DNA of 64,000 nt, taken from positions 4,216,001-4,280,000 of the forward strand of contig NZ_JACHMM010000001.1 of NCBI RefSeq assembly GCF_014204975.1, read 5' to 3'. The notes under the pieces are model-generated. The model saw nothing but the letters and a program-made list of their open reading frames with translations. It was not told the DNA's origin and did not search any database. This document shows, piece after piece, positions 15,340-51,831 of this stretch (its first letter is position 1; each line of letters begins with the position of its first letter). The stretch is from Jiangella mangrovi (lineage in GTDB: Bacteria; Actinomycetota; Actinomycetes; Jiangellales; Jiangellaceae). The position numbers and the translations under genes are program-made.

Positions 15340-16707
15340 TCACTCCGTCCGCCGCAGCAGCGCCAGGTACATCGCGTCGGTGCCGTGCCGGTGCGGCCAG
15401 AGCTGCACGTCCGGGCCGTCGCCCAGATCGGGCACGCCGGGCAGGTACGGACGGGCGTCGACCCGCTCGGCGTCGTCGCGACCGCGCAGGACGTCGTCGA
15501 CGACGGTGACCGTCTCGGCCAGGTGCGGCGAGCAGGTGACGTAGGCGACCAGCCCGCCGGGGCGGACCGACCACAGCGCCGAGCGGAGCAGGTCGGCCTG
15601 CAGCCTGCGCAGCCCCGCCACGTCGGCCGGGCGGCGCCGCCAGCGCGCCTCGGGCCGGCGCCGCAGCGCGCCGAGCCCGGTGCACGGGGCGTCCAGGAGG
15701 ACCCGGTCGAAGTCGGCCTCGGGCCACTCCGGCTTCGTCGCGTCGCCGACCAGGATCTCGTGCTCGCCGGGGTCGCCGGCCAGCGCCTGCGCGACCAGCC
15801 GGGCGCGGTGCTCGTGCTGCTCGACGGCGAGCAGCCGGCCGCCGCGCTGGGTGAGCAGGCCGGCCAGCAGCGCCGCCTTGCCGCCCGGGCCTGCGCAGAG
15901 GTCGAGCCAGCGCTCGTCCGGCGGCTCGACCGGGGCCGTGGCGAGGGCCAGCGCGACGAGCTGGCTGCCCTCGTCCTGCACGCCGGCCCGGCCGTCGCGG
16001 ACCGCGGCCAGCCGCGCGGGCGACCCGGACTCGAGCACGGCACCGAACGGCGACCAGCGGGTGGCCCGGGCCCCGGCCTGGGCCAGCTCCTCGACGGTGG
16101 CGCGGCCGGGCCGGGCGGCGAGGGTGACCTCGGCCGGCTCGTTGTCCGCCCGCAGCGTCGCCTCCAGCTCCGCGTCGTCGCCCTTCAGCGCGTCGCGGAA
16201 GGCCCGGACGATCCAGGCCGGGTGCGCGTGCCGGAACGCCAGGTGGCCGACCAGGTCCTCCTCGCGCGACGGGGCCAGCTCGGCCGCCCAGCCGTCGAGG
16301 TCGCGCTCGCCGATCCGCCGCAGGACCGCGTTGGCCAGCCGCGCCGCGCCCTCGTTGACGTGCCGGCGGACCAGATCGACGCTCGTCGACACCGCGGCGT
16401 GCGCGGGGACCCGCGTCGCCAGCAGCTGGTGGGCGCCCAGCCGGAGCGCGTCGAGCAGCGGCGGGTCCAGGTCGTCGAGCGACCGCGTCACGCAGGCCTC
16501 GATGACGGCGTCGTACGTGCCCTGCCCGCGCAGCGTCCCGTACCCGAGCTCGGTCGCCAGGCCGGCGTCGCGGCCGCGCAGCTCGTGGCGGCGCAGCGCC
16601 GCGGGCATGGCCAGGTTGGCGTAGGCGTCGTCGGCGCCGACTGCGCGCAGGACCTCGTAGGCGGCCTCGCGGGCGGGGTCGCCCGCCCGGCTCTTCTCCT
16701 GCCTCAC
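15340..16707 (-). CDS. rsmB: 16S rRNA m5C967 methyltransferase RsmB
   Basis: A 455-residue RNA m5C methyltransferase. An N-terminal NusB-like domain (about residues 10-150, [20 protein letters not shown] onward) is followed by the SAM-dependent domain with [25 protein letters not shown] and VTCSPH; the last two carry the paired cysteines used for release and catalysis in this family. The GTG start overlaps the fmt stop in GTGA; fmt-rsmB is a conserved pair across bacteria. Confidence 0.94.
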
Positions 16708-17633
16708 GCGCCGAGCCGCTCCCCCGGCTCCAGCCGGAGTCCGCGGGCCCAGTCGGCGGCCGGCATCGCCTTCTTGCCCTGCGGCTGGACCTCGCCGAGG
16801 ACGACGGCGTGGCTGCCGGTGCCGACCCGCACGCCGGACTTCTCGACGACGATCTCGCCGGGGGCCAGGCCGTCGCGGCCGCGTTCGAGGGCGACGGGGC
16901 GCAGCTTCAGCCGCTCGCCGCGGAAGGTCGTCCAGGCGCCGGGCGCGGGCGTGCAGCCGCGCACGACCCGGTCGACCCGCATGGCCGGCGCCGTCCAGTC
17001 GACGTGCGCGTCGTCGACGGTGAGCTTCGGCGCCAGCGACACCCCGTCGGCCGGCTGCGGCTGCGGGCTGAGCGCCCCGTCCTCGATGCCGTCGAGCGTG
17101 CGGACCAGCAGCTCCGCGCCCGACAGCGACAGCCGGTGCAGCAGGTCGCCGCTGGTGTCGGTGGGGTGGACGGCCTCGGTGACGGTGCCGTAGACCGGAC
17201 CGGTGTCGAGACCCTCCTCGAGTTGGAACGTGCAGGCGCCGGTGATGTCGTCGCCGGCCAGCACCGCGTGCTGCACCGGCGCCGCGCCCCGCCAGGCCGG
17301 CAGCAGCGAGAAGTGCAGGTTCACCCACCCGTGCTTCGGCACGTCGAGCGCCGTCTTCGGGATCAGCCCCCCGTAGGCGACGATCGGCGCGCAGTCCGGC
17401 GCCAGCTCGCCCAGCCGCTCGAGGAACTCGGGGTCGCGCGGCTTCAGCGGCCGCAGGATCTCGATGCCCGCCTCGGCCGCGACCTCCGCCACCGGCGACG
17501 GCGTCAGCCTGCGCCCCCGCCCGGCGGGGGCGTCGGGCCGCGTCAGGACGGCGATCACCTCGTGCCGCGACCCGAGCACCGCCCGCAGCGACGGGACGGC
17601 GACCTCAGGGGTTCCGGCGAACAGCACACGCAT
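16704..17633 (-). CDS. fmt: methionyl-tRNA formyltransferase
   Basis: A 309-residue enzyme formylating the initiator Met-tRNA with 10-formyl-tetrahydrofolate. The N-terminal catalytic domain starts [16 protein letters not shown] and carries the folate/catalytic signature [27 protein letters not shown] is another conserved segment. The C-terminal OB-like domain binds tRNA. The upstream peptide deformylase and PriA genes that often precede fmt are not present; instead a repeat-rich gap follows. Confidence 0.95.
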
Positions 17634-17716
17634 GAGCGCCGAGCCTACCGGCCCCGCCCGCCCCCGCTGCGCACCCGGCGCCCTCGGCCCACTCGGCCCA
17701 CGAACGCCGCCACTAT

Positions 17717-17860
17717 GTCACCTGATCATCTTCGGCGGACCGATCAGCTGACCGGGTCGACGCGAGCACGCACCGTCCGTCACCTGATCATCTCCAGCAT
17801 GTGGACTGAAACGATCAGGTGACCCAACCGCCACCGAGCCGGCGTGTACGTCACCTGATC
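17717..17860. repeat. five alternating copies of GTCACCTGATC between fmt and the ring-opening amidohydrolase
   Basis: The 270-base gene-free gap at 17634-17903 contains an 11-base motif five times in strictly alternating orientation: plus at 17717 and 17779 (both extended to GTCACCTGATCATC) and at 17850, minus at 17742-17752 (one mismatch, GATCAGCTGAC) and 17813-17823 (GATCAGGTGAC). Successive starts are 25, 37, 34 and 37 bases apart, so neighbouring copies could pair into hairpins or form an operator array. The 13-base core TCACCTGATCATC occurs again at 43114. No ORF of quality is present. Function unknown. Confidence 0.75.
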
Positions 17861-17903
17861 GCGACGGACGCCCGACGTCCGACGCCCGGCGCGCCGCGGC
17901 CGG

Positions 17904-19010
17904 CTACCCCAGGTCGACGATCGCGGCGACGGGGCCGCCGCCGTCGGGGCCCTGGTGGGCGGCCGACACCGAGACGAAGGCGGCCGGGTCGCCCGTGACC
18001 GCCGCCGTCACGCCGCCGACCGCCGCCTTGATCTGGCGGTGCCAGTGCACGTCGGAGTCGTCGAGCATGGCGTTGCGGCGGCCGCGCACCACGCCGTCCT
18101 GGCTGACCTCGCACTTGAGGAACACGTTGACCAGCCGGCCGTCCAGGTCGTCCGGATGCGGGCGGTCCGGCAGTTTCAGCCCCGCGTCGCGGACGGCGGC
18201 CCAGATGCCGTCGGCGTCGATGGCGTCGCGCATGACGGAGTGGCCGATGCGGTACCGCCCGCCCACCCCGCGCACGTTCCCGACCACCACGACCTGCGCC
18301 TGGTCCAGCTCGACACCGGAGGAGCAGGACGCGACCGACGAGTACAGCGAGCGGTCGTGCAGGACGGCGTCGTCGGACGGCATCGGGATCTCGCCCAGCG
18401 CGACCGCGACGCCGAGGCCGGTTGCACCGTTGGAGAGGTCCATCGACTCGTGCGTGTTCTCGGTCCACACCGACTTGCCGCGCGCCTTGGCGTCGCGGAT
18501 GGTGTGGATGGTCAGCAGCGGCGTCTTCGTCTGCACGTAGTGGACGTCGGCGGGGCCGGTGATGCCGGCCCGCTCCATGCCGACGCGCACGGCGGCCGCG
18601 ACCTTCTCGATCATGCCGCGGCGGCCGATCTCCTCGGGCAGGATCGGCTCGCTCATGGCGAACCCGACGGTCAGCCGCGGCTCGTCGGTCGCCTCGACGG
18701 AGGACGCCGGGACCGTCGCGAACACCGTCGCGTGTGGGCTGAGCACGCCGTCGGTGCCGCCGGACCAGACGATCGGGATCTGCTTGACCTCTTCGGGCGT
18801 GCGCGTGCCGCGGCTCACCAGCACCTCGCGGAAGGCGCGGTCGGCGATGATCCGCGTGTAGTCGTTGACCCCGCCGTTGCCCTCGGTCTTCCCGACGACG
18901 GCGATGACGCGGTCGGCCTCCATGACCCCGGCGTCGATCAGCTCGGCGAGCCCGGAGGCGTCGCTGACGTGCGTGATCGGCACCTTGCGGACCTCGATCG
19001 GCTCAGGCAT
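17904..19010 (-). CDS. ring-opening amidohydrolase (cyanuric acid hydrolase / barbiturase family)
   Basis: A 368-residue member of the small CAH/barbiturase family, which hydrolyses the heterocyclic ring of cyanuric acid (to carboxybiuret) or barbiturate (to ureidomalonate). The family has three similar domains that each supply a Lys-Ser pair: K41 in [16 protein letters not shown] is the first lysine, QTKTPLL is in the second region, and serines lie in [11 protein letters not shown] and in [14 protein letters not shown] cannot tell the two substrates apart from sequence alone. The ATG lies 8 bases inside the end of the carbamate kinase gene, so the two are co-translated. Barbiturase is favoured by the pyrimidine-type genes at 37-43 kb (inference). 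Confidence 0.85.
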
Positions 19011-43113: not shown

Positions 43114-43131
43114 TCACCTGATCATCGGCAA
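43114..43131. repeat. dispersed motif TCACCTGATCATC-GGCAA
   Basis: The 13-base string TCACCTGATCATC seen at 17718 and 17780 occurs here a third time, continued as GGCAA. The overlapping TGATCATCGGCAA (43119-43131) is also found at 31830-31842 in the HxlR promoter region. All copies are intergenic. A dispersed palindromic repeat family or a shared regulator site are the options. Confidence 0.55.
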
Positions 43132-48691: not shown

Positions 48692-51223
48692 ATGGTCGGC
48701 ATGGCACGCCGGACCACGACACCCCCGCCCGAGGACTTCGAAGAGGTCATCCTCGACGTCGACGTCTCGGACGAGATGCGGGGCAGCTTCCTCGAGTACG
48801 CCTATTCGGTCATCTACTCCCGCGCCATCCCGGACGCCCGCGACGGGCTGAAGCCGGTGCAGCGCCGGATCCTGTTCCAGATGAACGAGATGGGCCTGCG
48901 CCCCGACCGCCCGCACGTCAAGTGCGGCCGCGTCGTCGGCGACGTGATGGGCAAGCTGCACCCGCACGGCGACGGCGCCATCTACGACACCCTCGTGCGC
49001 ATGGCGCAGCCGTGGGCCATGCGGGTGCCGCTGGTCGACGGGCACGGCAACTTCGGGTCGCTCGACGCGGGCCCGGCCGCCTACCGGTACACCGAGTGCC
49101 GCATGAGCGAGCCGGCCATGCTGCTGGTGCGCTCGCTCGACGAGAACGTCGTCGACATGGTGCCGAACTACGACGGCCAGTTCGAGCAGCCCGAGGTGCT
49201 CCCGGCGGCGTTCCCAAACCTGCTGGTCAACGGCGCCACCGGCATCGCCGTCGGCATGGCGACGAACATGGCGCCGCACAACCTCGGCGAGGTCATCGAC
49301 GCGACGCGGCACCTGCTCACGCATCCTGAGGCGAGCCTCGACGACCTCATGCGGTTCGTCCCGGGGCCCGACCTCCCCAGCGGCGGCCGGATCATCGGGC
49401 TCGACGGCGTCCGCGAGGCCTACGAGTCGGGGCGCGGCGCCTTCAAGACCCGCGCGACCGCCCGCATCGAGAACATCACCGCCCGCCGCAAGGGCATCGT
49501 CATCACCGAGCTTCCGTACATGGTCGGCCCGGAGCGCGTGCGCGAGCGGATCGTCGAACTCGTCCGCAACAAGAAGCTCCAAGGCGTGGCCGACGTCGTC
49601 GACTACACCGACCGCAACACCGCGCTGCGCCTCGTCATCGAGCTGAAGAGCGGCTTCGTGCCCGAGGCGGTGCTCGAGGAGCTGTACCGCCTCACGCCGC
49701 TCGAGGACTCGTTCTCGATCAACAACGTCGCGCTCGTCGACGGGCAGCCGCGGACGCTGGGCCTCAAGGAGCTGCTCGAGGTCTTCATCGCGCACCGCCT
49801 GTCGGTCGTGCGGCGCCGCAGCGAGTTCCGTCGCACCAAGGCCGCCGACCGGCTGCACCTGGTCGACGGCCTCATGATCGCGCTGCTCGACATCGACGAG
49901 GTCATCGCGGTCATCCGCTCGTCCGACGACGCGTCGGCCGCCCGCGAGCGGTTGATGACGGTCTTCGACCTGTCTGACATCCAGGCCCGCTACATCCTCG
50001 ACACCCCGCTGCGCCGGCTCACCCGCTACGACCGGCTGGAGCTGGAGAAGGAGGGCGAGGACCTCCGTCGCACCATCGCCGAGCTGACGGCGCTGCTCGA
50101 GAACGAGGGCCTGCTGCGCCAGGCGGTCTCCGACGAGCTGGCCGAGATCGCCGCCGCGCACGCGACCCCGCGGCGCACGGTGCTGCTCGAGGAGTCCGGC
50201 GCCGTCACCACCCGGGCCGGCGCCGCGTCGCTCGAGATCGCCGACGACCCCTGCCAGGTGCTGCTGTCGTCGTCCGGCCTGCTGGCGCGGACGGCGGGCG
50301 AGGAGCCGCTGCTCTACGGCGACAAGCGCTCCAAGCACGACGTCATCGTCTCCGTGGCCGCGTCGACGGCGCGCGGCGAAGTCGGCGTCGTCACGTCGAC
50401 GGGGCGCGTGCTGCGACTGTCGGTGCTCGACCTGCCCTCGTTGCCGCCGACGGCCGCCCTGACGCTGGCGGGCGGGGCAGCCTTGAAGGAGTTCATCGAG
50501 CTGGATCCGGGCGAGCGAGCCCTGGCGCTGACGACGTTCTCCGAGTCGTCGCCGGGCCTGGCCCTCGGGACCGAGCGCGGCATCGTCAAGCGGGTCGTCC
50601 CGGACCACCCCGGCAAGGACTCCTACGACGTCATCCGGCTCGACGACGGCGACCGCGTGGTCGGCGCCGTCGAACTGGTCACCGGCGACGAGGACCTGGT
50701 CTTCATCACCTCTGACGCACAACTGCTGCGGTTCTCGGCGTCGGCGGTCCGTCCGCAGGGCCGGGCCGGCGGCGGGATCGCCGGCGTCAAGCTGTCGTCA
50801 GGGGCGAAGGTGACGTTCTTCGGTTCGGTCGACGGCGCTCGCCCGGGTTCCGTGGTCACCGTCTCCGGCTCGTCGACGGCGTTGCCGGGGACCCAGCCGG
50901 GCGCGGTCAAGGTGACGCCATACTCGGAGTACCCGGCCAAGGGCCGCGCGACCGGTGGGGTTCGGTGCCATCGGTTCCTGAAGGGCGAGGACACGCTGAT
51001 CTTGGCGTGGGCGGGAGCGGCTCCGGCGCGGGCGGCTGCCGCGAGCGGGGTGCCCATCGAACTTCCGGCGGACGTCGGGCGGCGCGACGGGTCCGGCATC
51101 GGAGTCGCCCAGCCGATCGCCGCCGTGGGCGGACCCCTGGTCGCCGGTTCCGAGGGTGATTCCGAGGCGGCTTCGGGGGCGCCAGTGATCGACGGGGAGC
51201 AGGCGACGCTGGACCTGGAGTAG
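48692..51223 (+). CDS. DNA gyrase/topoisomerase IV subunit A
   Basis: An 843-residue type IIA topoisomerase A subunit. The catalytic tyrosine is Y133 (AYRYTECRM). The quinolone region reads [11 protein letters not shown]95 stands at the place of GyrA Ser83 (E. coli numbering), and D99 at that of Asp87. The C-terminal half is the beta-pinwheel with repeated blades ([49 protein letters not shown]); the short Ala/Gly-rich tail ends QATLDLE. Because the housekeeping gyrA normally sits with gyrB and recF near oriC and neither is here, the second actinobacterial enzyme (ParC-like) is more likely; no parE is in the window. ATG at 48692 or 48701. Confidence 0.9.
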
Positions 51224-51395: not shown

Positions 51396-51831
51396 AGGGA
51401 CCCCACCCCCAGAATGGCCCCGGCACTTATCCCCGCTGTTCTCGAGTCAAGCCGGCCGCTGACGGCTCACGCGTGGGTGGCAACCTCTCCCGCTGTGGTG
51501 AGGTCCCGCCGGCCGCTTTCCATGATCATCAACCTTTCGTGTCGCCAGAGCAGCCCGAAAGGTTGATGATCATGGTCCGGGGGCGGCGCTGACGCCCTGG
51601 AAACCGGCGGACGCCTCGGAAACCGGCGGTTGGCAGCGAATTCCGGGCCGCAAGCGCCGGTTTCCCGAGCGTGAGCCGGATTGCGGGGCGTCGCCACCGC
51701 CGCCGGCGGCCGGCGAGACCGCCACCCACGGCGAGACCAACTGCCGAACACCACAGCGGAACCGCCAGCGGCCGGCGTGACTCGAGAACAGCGGGTCTGA
51801 GGGCCGGGGCCATTCCGGGGAGGGGGCCCTC
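51396..51831. repeat. MITE-like non-coding element with long terminal inverted repeats
   Basis: Arms at 51412-51461 and 51766-51815 are inverted repeats matching at 45 of 50 positions, including an unbroken 18-base match (CCCGCTGTTCTCGAGTCA) and flanking blocks GAATGGCCCCGGC and GCCGGCCGCTG. Weaker matching continues outward (AGGG-CCCC-CCCC) to about 51396 and 51831. The interior has the perfect stem at 51520-51575 and no credible gene; the short frames here have poor codon pattern. Together with 51224-51395 it fills the 660-base gap between the topoisomerase and TetR genes. No target-site duplication was clear. Confidence 0.6.
51520..51575. repeat. perfect 20-bp inverted repeat inside the MITE-like element
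   Basis: Arms CCATGATCATCAACCTTTCG (51520-51539) and its exact complement (51556-51575) are separated by 16 bases. The arms are much more AT-rich than their surroundings and contain ATGATCAT, echoing the GATCATG ends of the hairpin at 21242. It could be a terminator for the convergent genes on either side or part of the element's own structure. Confidence 0.7.

What the first reader, a model, noticed from the sequence alone, without database searches (positions are those of the whole stretch)
17717..17860. Five-copy alternating GTCACCTGATC array in a gene-free gap
An 11-base motif is repeated five times in strict plus/minus/plus/minus/plus order with 25-37 base spacing; two copies are extended to 14 identical bases. 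This is far beyond chance in 144 bases. It could be a multi-site operator, a nucleoid-protein binding array or a folded RNA between fmt and the ring-opening amidohydrolase.
Basis: seen in the sequence. Interest (0 to 1): 0.7.

Follow-up and report, generated by a model that had tools for sequence, protein, structure and literature searches.

The report
Repeat array tied to nuclease gene
The five-copy repeat is one of many scattered arrays of a short DNA site that also flanks a gene for a DNA-binding nuclease, and many relatives of that gene are framed by their own private palindromes, which points to a repeat-and-nuclease partnership like REP/RAYT but built on an unrelated enzyme.

Summary
The array is real: window 17717-17860 holds five GTCACCTGATC sites in +-+-+ order (one with a mismatch) in a 270-bp gap between fmt and a ring-opening amidohydrolase. 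It is not a private operator of these genes: the genome has 33 exact copies, many in alternating intergenic arrays, and 20 family genomes have 3 to 258. The fullest unit has six sites (++-+-+) at fixed spacing. Sites stay the same while spacers drift, without clear covariation, so sequence rather than RNA fold is kept. In 8 family genomes the arrays flank one gene, an AbiEi-antitoxin fold fused to a Vsr-like nuclease. Its relatives carry other palindromes: 49 of 101 loci have matching hairpins on both sides, against 24 of 7110 mispaired flanks, and motifs follow protein clades. The window's site is empty or nearly so in three relatives and holds other families' hairpins in others. No Y1 (RAYT-type) transposase was found in 12 genomes. 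Best reading: a REP/RAYT-like repeat-nuclease system with an unrelated enzyme. Shown: association, conservation, presence/absence, dispersal. Inferred: binding, cutting, mobilisation. Against: one genome has 165 copies but no close gene; 52 of 101 loci lack the matched pair; no dispersal was seen in Mumia.

The parts
17717..17860 (.). Whole array, sites R2-R3'-R4-R5'-R6 of the six-site unit (R1 is missing here)
   Evidence: unit geometry from relatives
17717..17727 (+). Site 1, GTCACCTGATC
17728..17741 (.). 14-bp loop between sites 1 and 2
17742..17752 (-). Site 2, GTCAGCTGATC (one mismatch)
17753..17778 (.). 26-bp variable spacer
17779..17789 (+). Site 3, GTCACCTGATC
17790..17812 (.). 23-bp semi-conserved loop (atctccagcatgtggactgaaac)
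17813..17823 (-). Site 4, GTCACCTGATC
17824..17849 (.). 26-bp variable spacer
17850..17860 (+). Site 5, GTCACCTGATC
17634..17903 (.). Intergenic place that holds the array in G000 and G004, is empty or nearly so in G003, G006, G011, and holds other palindromes in G001, G008, G009, G010
16704..17633 (-). fmt, neighbour; not thought to be part of the system
17904..19010 (-). Ring-opening (cyanuric-acid-type) amidohydrolase, neighbour; its stop codon is 43 bp from the array
51507..51588 (.). A second palindrome in this window, of the CCATGATCATCAACCTTT type that flanks other clades of the same nuclease family in G003, G009 and G010
   Evidence: family motif

Best explanation
The array is a non-autonomous, dispersed member of a repeat family that belongs with one nuclease gene, much as REPINs belong with RAYTs. 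SHOWN: (1) the 11-bp sites occur in alternating intergenic arrays of fixed geometry at many loci; (2) the same arrays flank a gene for a protein with an AbiEi fold and a C-terminal Vsr-like nuclease domain (predicted structure); (3) other clades of this protein family are flanked by their own, different palindromes, and the palindromes follow the protein clades; (4) sites, not spacers, are kept; (5) arrays and hairpins are present at a given place in some relatives and absent in others. INFERRED: the AbiEi-like winged-helix part binds the sites, several copies along one array; the nuclease part nicks or cuts at or next to the bound array; repair or strand transfer then copies or moves the array into other intergenic places, mostly soon after stop codons; arrays without a gene are the non-autonomous copies. 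In the window's genome the presumed partner gene is at C1:3006506-3007432, outside the window. Whether a host benefit also keeps the sites is open.
For: 33 exact copies in the genome with arrays at several places. Six-site unit with the same spacing in several genera. The longest of 20 fetched G017 elements encodes the protein; its closest homologues in G000, G002, G004, G008, G010, G017, G018 and G021 all lie beside arrays, on both sides in four. Fold: residues 10-200 to AbiEi antitoxin 6y8q (Z 11.9), 203-307 to 3hrl (Z 10.0) and 202-307 to the homing endonuclease I-Bth0305I 3r3p (Z 9.1); profile match to 3hrl E 3e-5; D239, E250, H256, D265, R268 invariant in 36 proteins. Matching flank hairpins in 49 of 101 family loci against 24 of 7110 mispaired flanks, and in 15 of 44 named loci against 0 of 40 control windows. 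Arm words shared in 645 of 1230 between-genome pairs at 50% identity or more, 2 of 1943 at 30-50%, 35 of 1760 at 20-30%. A second clade's motif is dispersed too: 60 copies in G000, 38 in G006, none in G002, G004, G005, G009. Site conservation 54/55 against 63/91, and 55/55 against 63/91 beside the gene (Fisher p 7e-6, 4e-7). Presence/absence at fmt and sdhB. Related array cores in different contexts in G009. No Y1 transposase in 12 genomes. Copies against gene: 30-258 in 8 genomes with it, 3-11 in 11 of 12 without.
Against: G009 has 165 copies and no close homologue. 52 of 101 loci show no matched pair; 3' side only in four of the eight clade-A genomes. No dispersal of the Mumia palindrome: 3 copies away from the gene, against 0-3 in nine other genomes. 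The clade-A gene sits at one conserved place (beside sdhB) in several Jiangella-like genomes and H. alba, so the gene itself is not seen to move there. No target duplication was recognised (by eye). Binding and cutting are untested. Copy-number and gene table: cut chosen after looking, not corrected for kinship. Conserved sites could also mean a host function.
Confidence: 0.66

Rival explanations
1. The arrays are a genome-wide set of operators: the AbiEi-like protein is a regulator of its own gene and of many others, and the sites are conserved for gene control.
For: AbiEi-family antitoxins repress their own promoters through inverted repeats (PMC7319586, passages). Sites are conserved in place.
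Against: Arrays lie nearer to stop codons (median 28.5 bp, 44 distances) than to start codons (111 bp, 22 distances); they flank the gene on the 3' side in all eight clade-A genomes and on the 5' side in only four; presence differs between sister species and the same place can hold other families' hairpins; the protein carries a nuclease domain.
Confidence: 0.13
2. The arrays are miniature elements of some other transposase (for example a DDE type); the AbiEi-nuclease gene is only a passenger caught between ends, as the CsbD gene is in one G017 element.
For: One G017 element (L090) holds a CsbD gene (PF05532, 53.1 bits) between its ends; paired inverted ends look like transposon ends; G009 has many copies without a close gene.
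Against: The same protein family is beside the arrays in eight genomes of three or more genera, and its distant clades have their own palindromes, which a chance passenger would not explain. Only six G017 elements were looked through for long reading frames, so another enzyme elsewhere is not excluded.
Confidence: 0.1
3. The arrays are 3'-end structures (terminators or transcript-stabilising hairpins) kept for RNA reasons.
For: They lie close behind genes and both strands fold better than shuffles (z -2.6, -2.5).
Against: No covariation: Watson-Crick pairs in spacers and loops are not above re-dealt partners (z 0.7 and -0.8 for spacers over 8 and 11 positions, -1.8 and -3.6 for the long loop, 0.9 for the short loop), except z 2.8 at the outermost four spacer positions. 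No Rfam match at the arrays. Exact site sequence is kept, which a hairpin does not need.
Confidence: 0.06
4. The arrays are binding sites of a nucleoid or chromosome-organising protein of the host.
For: Many dispersed multi-site arrays of fixed geometry.
Against: Sister species of the same genus have almost none (3 to 11 exact copies in G001, G003, G005, G006, G007, G011), so no core chromosome function can depend on them.
Confidence: 0.05

Closest known systems
REP / REPIN sequences with RAYT (REP-associated Y1 tyrosine transposase)
   Same: Extragenic dispersed palindromes; enzyme gene flanked by its own repeats; one close gene copy per genome; repeats and enzyme clades match; some genomes with large amplification. 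The RAYT features are from passages of PMC2817692 and PMC3116915.
   Different: The enzyme is not an HUH/Y1 protein: AbiEi fold plus Vsr-like nuclease, and no Y1_Tnp in 12 genomes. The site is a non-palindromic 11-mer in arrays of up to six, without the GTAG/GTGG head.
BIMEs (alternating REP mosaics)
   Same: Regularly spaced repeats in alternating orientation between genes, near gene ends (BIME definition from the PMC2817692 abstract).
   Different: Unit is an 11-bp asymmetric site, not a REP; six-site ++-+-+ unit with its own spacing.
AbiEi antitoxins of type IV toxin-antitoxin systems
   Same: The first 200 residues have the whole AbiEi fold (6y8q, Z 11.9, 184 aligned); two of five scanned members pass Pfam's AbiEi_4 cut-off; known members bind inverted repeats (PMC7319586).
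   Different: A nuclease domain is fused on; palindromes lie on both sides of many of these genes and are dispersed; in G000 the gene downstream is sdhB beyond the array, not a toxin gene.
Vsr-like / EDxHD nucleases (3hrl, homing endonuclease I-Bth0305I)
   Same: The C-terminal 105 residues share the fold (Z 10.0 and 9.1), with invariant D239, E250, H256, D265, R268.
   Different: No intron or intein context seen; an AbiEi-type domain in front; own palindromes on the flanks.

Membership tests
REPIN/RAYT | Enzyme with the HUH/Y1 transposase domain (PF01797) | tested here: not met
   0 of 12 genomes match PF01797 at E 0.001; the control set gives matches in 5 of 14 known genomes. The linked protein has other folds.
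REPIN/RAYT | Enzyme gene flanked by its own repeats on both sides | tested here: met
   Clade A: both sides in 4 of 8 genomes, 3' side only in 4. Whole family: 49 of 101 loci. So met for part of the family.
REPIN/RAYT | Repeat unit is a palindrome with a GTAG/GTGG head | tested here: not met
   GTCACCTGATC and the other clades' palindromes read directly have no such head.
REPIN/RAYT | Repeats dispersed, extragenic, many copies | tested here: met
   33 copies in G000, up to 258 in the family; 0 of 33 arrays overlap a predicted gene.
REPIN/RAYT | One copy of each enzyme gene per genome | tested here: met
   One homologue of about 55% identity or more in each of the eight genomes (in two pieces in G002 and G004); other homologues in them are 44% or less (the listing is complete for E 0.001 as printed).
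BIME | REP units in alternating orientation | tested here: not met
   Alternation is there, but the unit is an asymmetric 11-mer, not a REP.
AbiE type IV toxin-antitoxin | AbiEi fold | tested here: met
   6y8q Z 11.9, rmsd 4.3, 184 aligned; Foldseek E 1.5e-5.
AbiE type IV toxin-antitoxin | Adjacent AbiEii nucleotidyltransferase toxin gene | tested here: inconclusive
   Downstream of the array in G000 is sdhB; no AbiEii family search was run.
Vsr-like / EDxHD nuclease | Nuclease fold and conserved acidic/histidine residues | tested here: met
   3hrl Z 10.0, 3r3p Z 9.1; 3hrl by profile E 3e-5; invariant residues. DUF559 in Pfam only below its cut-off.
Vsr-like / EDxHD nuclease | DNA cleavage | not testable with these tools
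Insertion sequence / DDE transposon | DDE or other known transposase between the ends | tested here: inconclusive
   Of the G017 elements six were looked through for long frames: one holds the AbiEi-nuclease gene, one a CsbD gene, four no recognised gene. No transposase family search was run except Y1.
Structured RNA | Covarying helices or a known Rfam family | tested here: not met
   (a weak signal, z 2.8, at the outermost four spacer positions is the exception)

The most novel reading that the evidence does not exclude
A separate class of bacterial repeat-and-nuclease systems: proteins with an AbiEi fold fused to a Vsr-like nuclease each recognise a private palindrome or site array, keep copies beside their own gene, and spread them through intergenic DNA. 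It would be an independent invention of the REP/RAYT way of life, spread over several orders of Actinomycetes, in which the target sequence changes with the protein clade and a shared palindrome centre (CTATGA-like) may be the cut site.
Probability: 0.5. Interest if true: 0.92.

Novelty: new variant of a known kind. Interest (0 to 1): 0.84.

Why it matters
REP-like repeats in bacteria are tied in print mainly to one enzyme family, the RAYTs, and one large REP group (CGTC) apparently lacks a dedicated enzyme (PMC3733652, abstract passage). Here an unrelated nuclease family shows the same signs: private palindromes on both flanks, clade-matched motifs, dispersed copies, and presence/absence at shared places. 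If true, it offers a second, testable answer to how intragenomic repeat populations are made and kept, gives a likely target rule for a protein family without known function, and supplies many natural protein/site pairs for learning how an AbiEi-type winged helix reads DNA.

Tried and rejected
Folded RNA: Rfam at E 1 on 14 loci gave one row, far below its gathering score and away from the array; covariation absent apart from one weak signal. RAYT as the mobiliser: none in 12 genomes. The reversed-pattern control of the genome search is biased for this motif (reversed it contains CTAG, which I recall as rare in such genomes), so I do not lean on its zeros. A first flank test and a first clade comparison with some mis-framed genes were replaced; one search gave 35 of 69 own pairs against 650 of 4692 mispaired, the latter including related paralogues; 183 of 752 pairs at 10-20% identity shared words because of wrong frames. 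In one search one of 102 loci (L120, broken gene) fell out for length; two loci are in the set twice under two ids (L116/L182 and L129/L184), none of them with matched hairpins, so 49 of 99 distinct loci. Same-genome paralogue pairs share words in 44 of 117, so clades within a genome are not always separate. Gene orientation around arrays (18 codirectional, 13 convergent, 2 divergent of 33) is not visibly different from all adjacent gene pairs in those loci (51, 18, 8), so only distances are used; genes there were called by a GC3 rule, 5 arrays at locus edges were dropped and clusters under 3 sites not counted; loci were picked by the motif. The palindrome centre (31 of 98 hairpins against 36 of 1985 random 16-mers) was chosen after looking and is only a lead. 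The gene-presence table uses a cut made after looking (about 55% identity or more to the G017 protein): G012, G015, G016, G019, G020 have 45-52% homologues and count as without; G013 and G014 (81% and 75% complete, 5 and 2 copies) were left out. Without G009 the split would be complete; with it Fisher p is 7e-5 and Mann-Whitney p 9e-4, neither corrected for kinship. Literature: 0 papers hold both AbiEi and DUF559; DUF559 with palindrom gives 2, unrelated by title and abstract; some searches were seen as listings only. Passages were read of PMC3733652, PMC12306157, PMC7319586, PMC3116915 and PMC2817692; no paper was read whole. The library is open-access PubMed Central only, so absence from print is not shown.

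Full report
What is there. The window carries five copies of GTCACCTGATC in strict +-+-+ order at 17717-17860, one with a mismatch, in a 270-bp gap between the start of fmt and the end of a ring-opening amidohydrolase, both on the minus strand. The only 10-mers with four copies within 150 bp anywhere in the window lie here; 100 Markov resamples of the window never reached four.

It is a genome-wide repeat. The genome has 33 exact copies. Besides this array there are alternating arrays at C1:3007449 (5 sites), 6179645 (6), 3908814 (3), 3927287 (5, two of them with a mismatch) and 6646708 (3), a pair at 182734, and single copies. Across 20 genomes of the family exact copies range from 3 to 258. 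The fullest units, seen in several genera, have six sites, ++-+-+, at start-to-start steps of 19, 25, 37, 35 and 37 bases; the window array is this unit without its first site. In one relative, G017, 165 such ends (two mismatches allowed; 100 listed) are largely paired as inverted repeats 115 to 1438 bp apart. Of 20 fetched elements, 9 have 59 or 60 of 60 identical positions between the two ends at positions 61-120, where different elements differ from each other; others are less alike. Why the ends agree is not known; correction of imperfect inverted repeats during replication would do it (general knowledge, untested).

The linked gene. The longest of those 20 elements (1470 bp) encodes a 310-residue protein. 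The closest homologues in eight family genomes are all next to arrays of this motif: on both sides in G017, G021, G018 and G002 (where the gene is broken by a stop), on the 3' side only in G000, G010, G008 and G004. The predicted structure of the Haloactinopolyspora alba protein (36-sequence alignment, mean pLDDT 89, pTM 0.69) matches the AbiEi antitoxin 6y8q over residues 10-200 (Z 11.9) and, over residues 202-307, the endonuclease-like protein 3hrl (Z 10.0) and the homing endonuclease I-Bth0305I (Z 9.1). By sequence a profile finds 3hrl at E 3e-5. D239, E250, H256, D265 and R268 are invariant in 36 proteins. Pfam's AbiEi_4 passes its cut-off in 2 of 5 members scanned, DUF559 in none; the G017 and H. 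alba proteins give no family.

The rule is general. Relatives of this gene carry other palindromes on their flanks, such as CATGATCATCAAGGATC, CCCATGATCATGTTCCCTCG, CTACCGACATT and CGTCCTGCAG. With corrected frames, 49 of 101 loci share hairpin-arm words between their two flanks (39 of 68 from the G genomes, 10 of 33 from named records; two of the latter repeat G loci), against 24 of 7110 mispaired flanks from proteins under 45% identical. In 44 named loci, family members included, 15 share, against 0 of 40 control windows 800 bp further out in the same loci. In Hoyosella rhizosphaerae an identical 51-bp palindrome stands on both sides. Between genomes, sharing of arm words depends on protein kinship: 35 of 1760 pairs at 20-30% identity, 2 of 1943 at 30-50%, 645 of 1230 at 50% or more. 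A second clade's motif is dispersed in its own hosts: GATCATCAAGGATC has 60 copies in G000, 38 in G006, 12 in G007, 6 in G001, 4 in G008 and G011, 3 in G003, 2 in G010, 1 in G012 and none in G002, G004, G005 and G009. Against generality: 52 of 101 loci showed no matched pair, and the palindrome of the Mumia gene has three copies away from the gene, no more than chance-like counts of 0-3 in nine other genomes.

Sites, not structure, are kept. At the window's own locus G000 and G004 agree at 54 of 55 site positions but at 63 of 91 loop and spacer positions; beside the nuclease gene G000 and G010 agree at 55 of 55 and 63 of 91 (Fisher p 7e-6 and 4e-7). G000 against G008 there is 43 of 55 and 44 of 91, because G008 lacks part of the array. 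If the G004 array were an independent insertion, the first comparison would show conservation within the family rather than in place. Pairing inside spacers and loops is not above that of re-dealt partners, apart from a weak signal at the outermost four spacer positions (z 2.8); the long loop even pairs less (z -3.6). The positions next to the sites are also biased (for example T three bases before and C one base before GTCACCTGATC), so the site may be nearer 18 bp.

Presence and absence at shared places. The fmt-amidohydrolase gap could be compared in 11 of 12 genus genomes. G000 and G004 have the array; G003 is empty and G006 and G011 nearly so; G001 has the GATCATCGGCGATCGAC hairpin that flanks another clade of the same nuclease family; G008 has a GATCTTGGAGTA hairpin; G009 and G010 have another palindrome; G002 and G007 have other sequence; G005 was not comparable. 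Beside sdhB (352.8 bits), where the clade-A gene sits in G000, G002, G008 and G010, four other species (G001, G006, G009, G011) have a distant family member (28-34% identical) with that GATCTTGGAGTA hairpin between it and sdhB; G003 has one lone site; G005 and G007 have neither; G004 is split between contigs. In Phytoactinopolyspora limicola the gene lies next to pcrA (985.9 bits), which in H. alba is on the other side of the gene. So the gene is at a largely conserved place, as RAYTs are. In G009 nine loci have array cores 88 to 96% identical to a tenth over 60 to 166 bp in partly different surroundings; several are nested in another palindrome family. Of 33 arrays none overlaps a predicted gene, and they lie nearer to stop codons (median 28.5 bp) than to start codons (111 bp).

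Gene and copy number. The 8 genomes with the close gene have 30 to 258 copies; the 12 without have 3 to 11, except G009 with 165 (cut made after looking, no kinship correction). G009 may have lost its gene after amplification, or something else may serve its arrays.

How it most likely works. By analogy with REPIN/RAYT (PMC2817692 and PMC3116915, passages read), the nuclease is a resident enzyme whose private sites spread in intergenic DNA. AbiEi-family antitoxins bind two or four inverted repeats (PMC7319586, passages read), which fits multi-site arrays. Binding, cutting and transfer are inference. It is not a RAYT system: the Y1 domain was not found in 12 genomes and the enzyme's folds differ.

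Novelty. No paper in the held library has AbiEi and DUF559 together; the two with DUF559 and palindrom are unrelated by title and abstract. I file it as a new variant of the repeat-plus-enzyme kind; the bolder reading, a separate class, is given as the novel case.

Noticed in passing
window 51507-51588: A second palindrome of the same wider system, CCATGATCATCAACCTTTCG...CGAAAGGTTGATGATCATGG, 284 bp after a DNA topoisomerase subunit A gene (48692-51223); its arms match the type that flanks nuclease-family genes in G003, G009 and G010.
   Followed up: partly
window 43114-43123: One isolated TCACCTGATC, not preceded by G and so not among the 33 exact 11-mers.
   Followed up: no
L248, L251-L254 (G009), fmt gap of G009 and G010 (L225, L226): Another palindromic repeat family (GGGTGTGGCTCCCGGGTC...GACCCGGGAGCCACACCC) that in G009 can hold a GTCACCTGATC array inside it.
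   Followed up: partly
L090 (G017:C34:453400-455100): A CsbD-like gene (PF05532, 53.1 bits) lies between two inverted array ends, as if carried.
   Followed up: partly
L229, L272, L274, L276, L278: A GTTGATCTTGGAGTA...TACTCCAAGATCAAC hairpin, at the fmt gap of G008 and beside a distant family gene next to sdhB in G001, G006, G009, G011; similar GATCTTGGA palindromes flank family genes in Planosporangium.
   Followed up: partly
flanks of 49 family loci: Centres of the flanking palindromes often hold CTAT/CATA-type words: 31 of 98 hairpins against 36 of 1985 random 16-mers; the word set was chosen after looking.
   Followed up: partly
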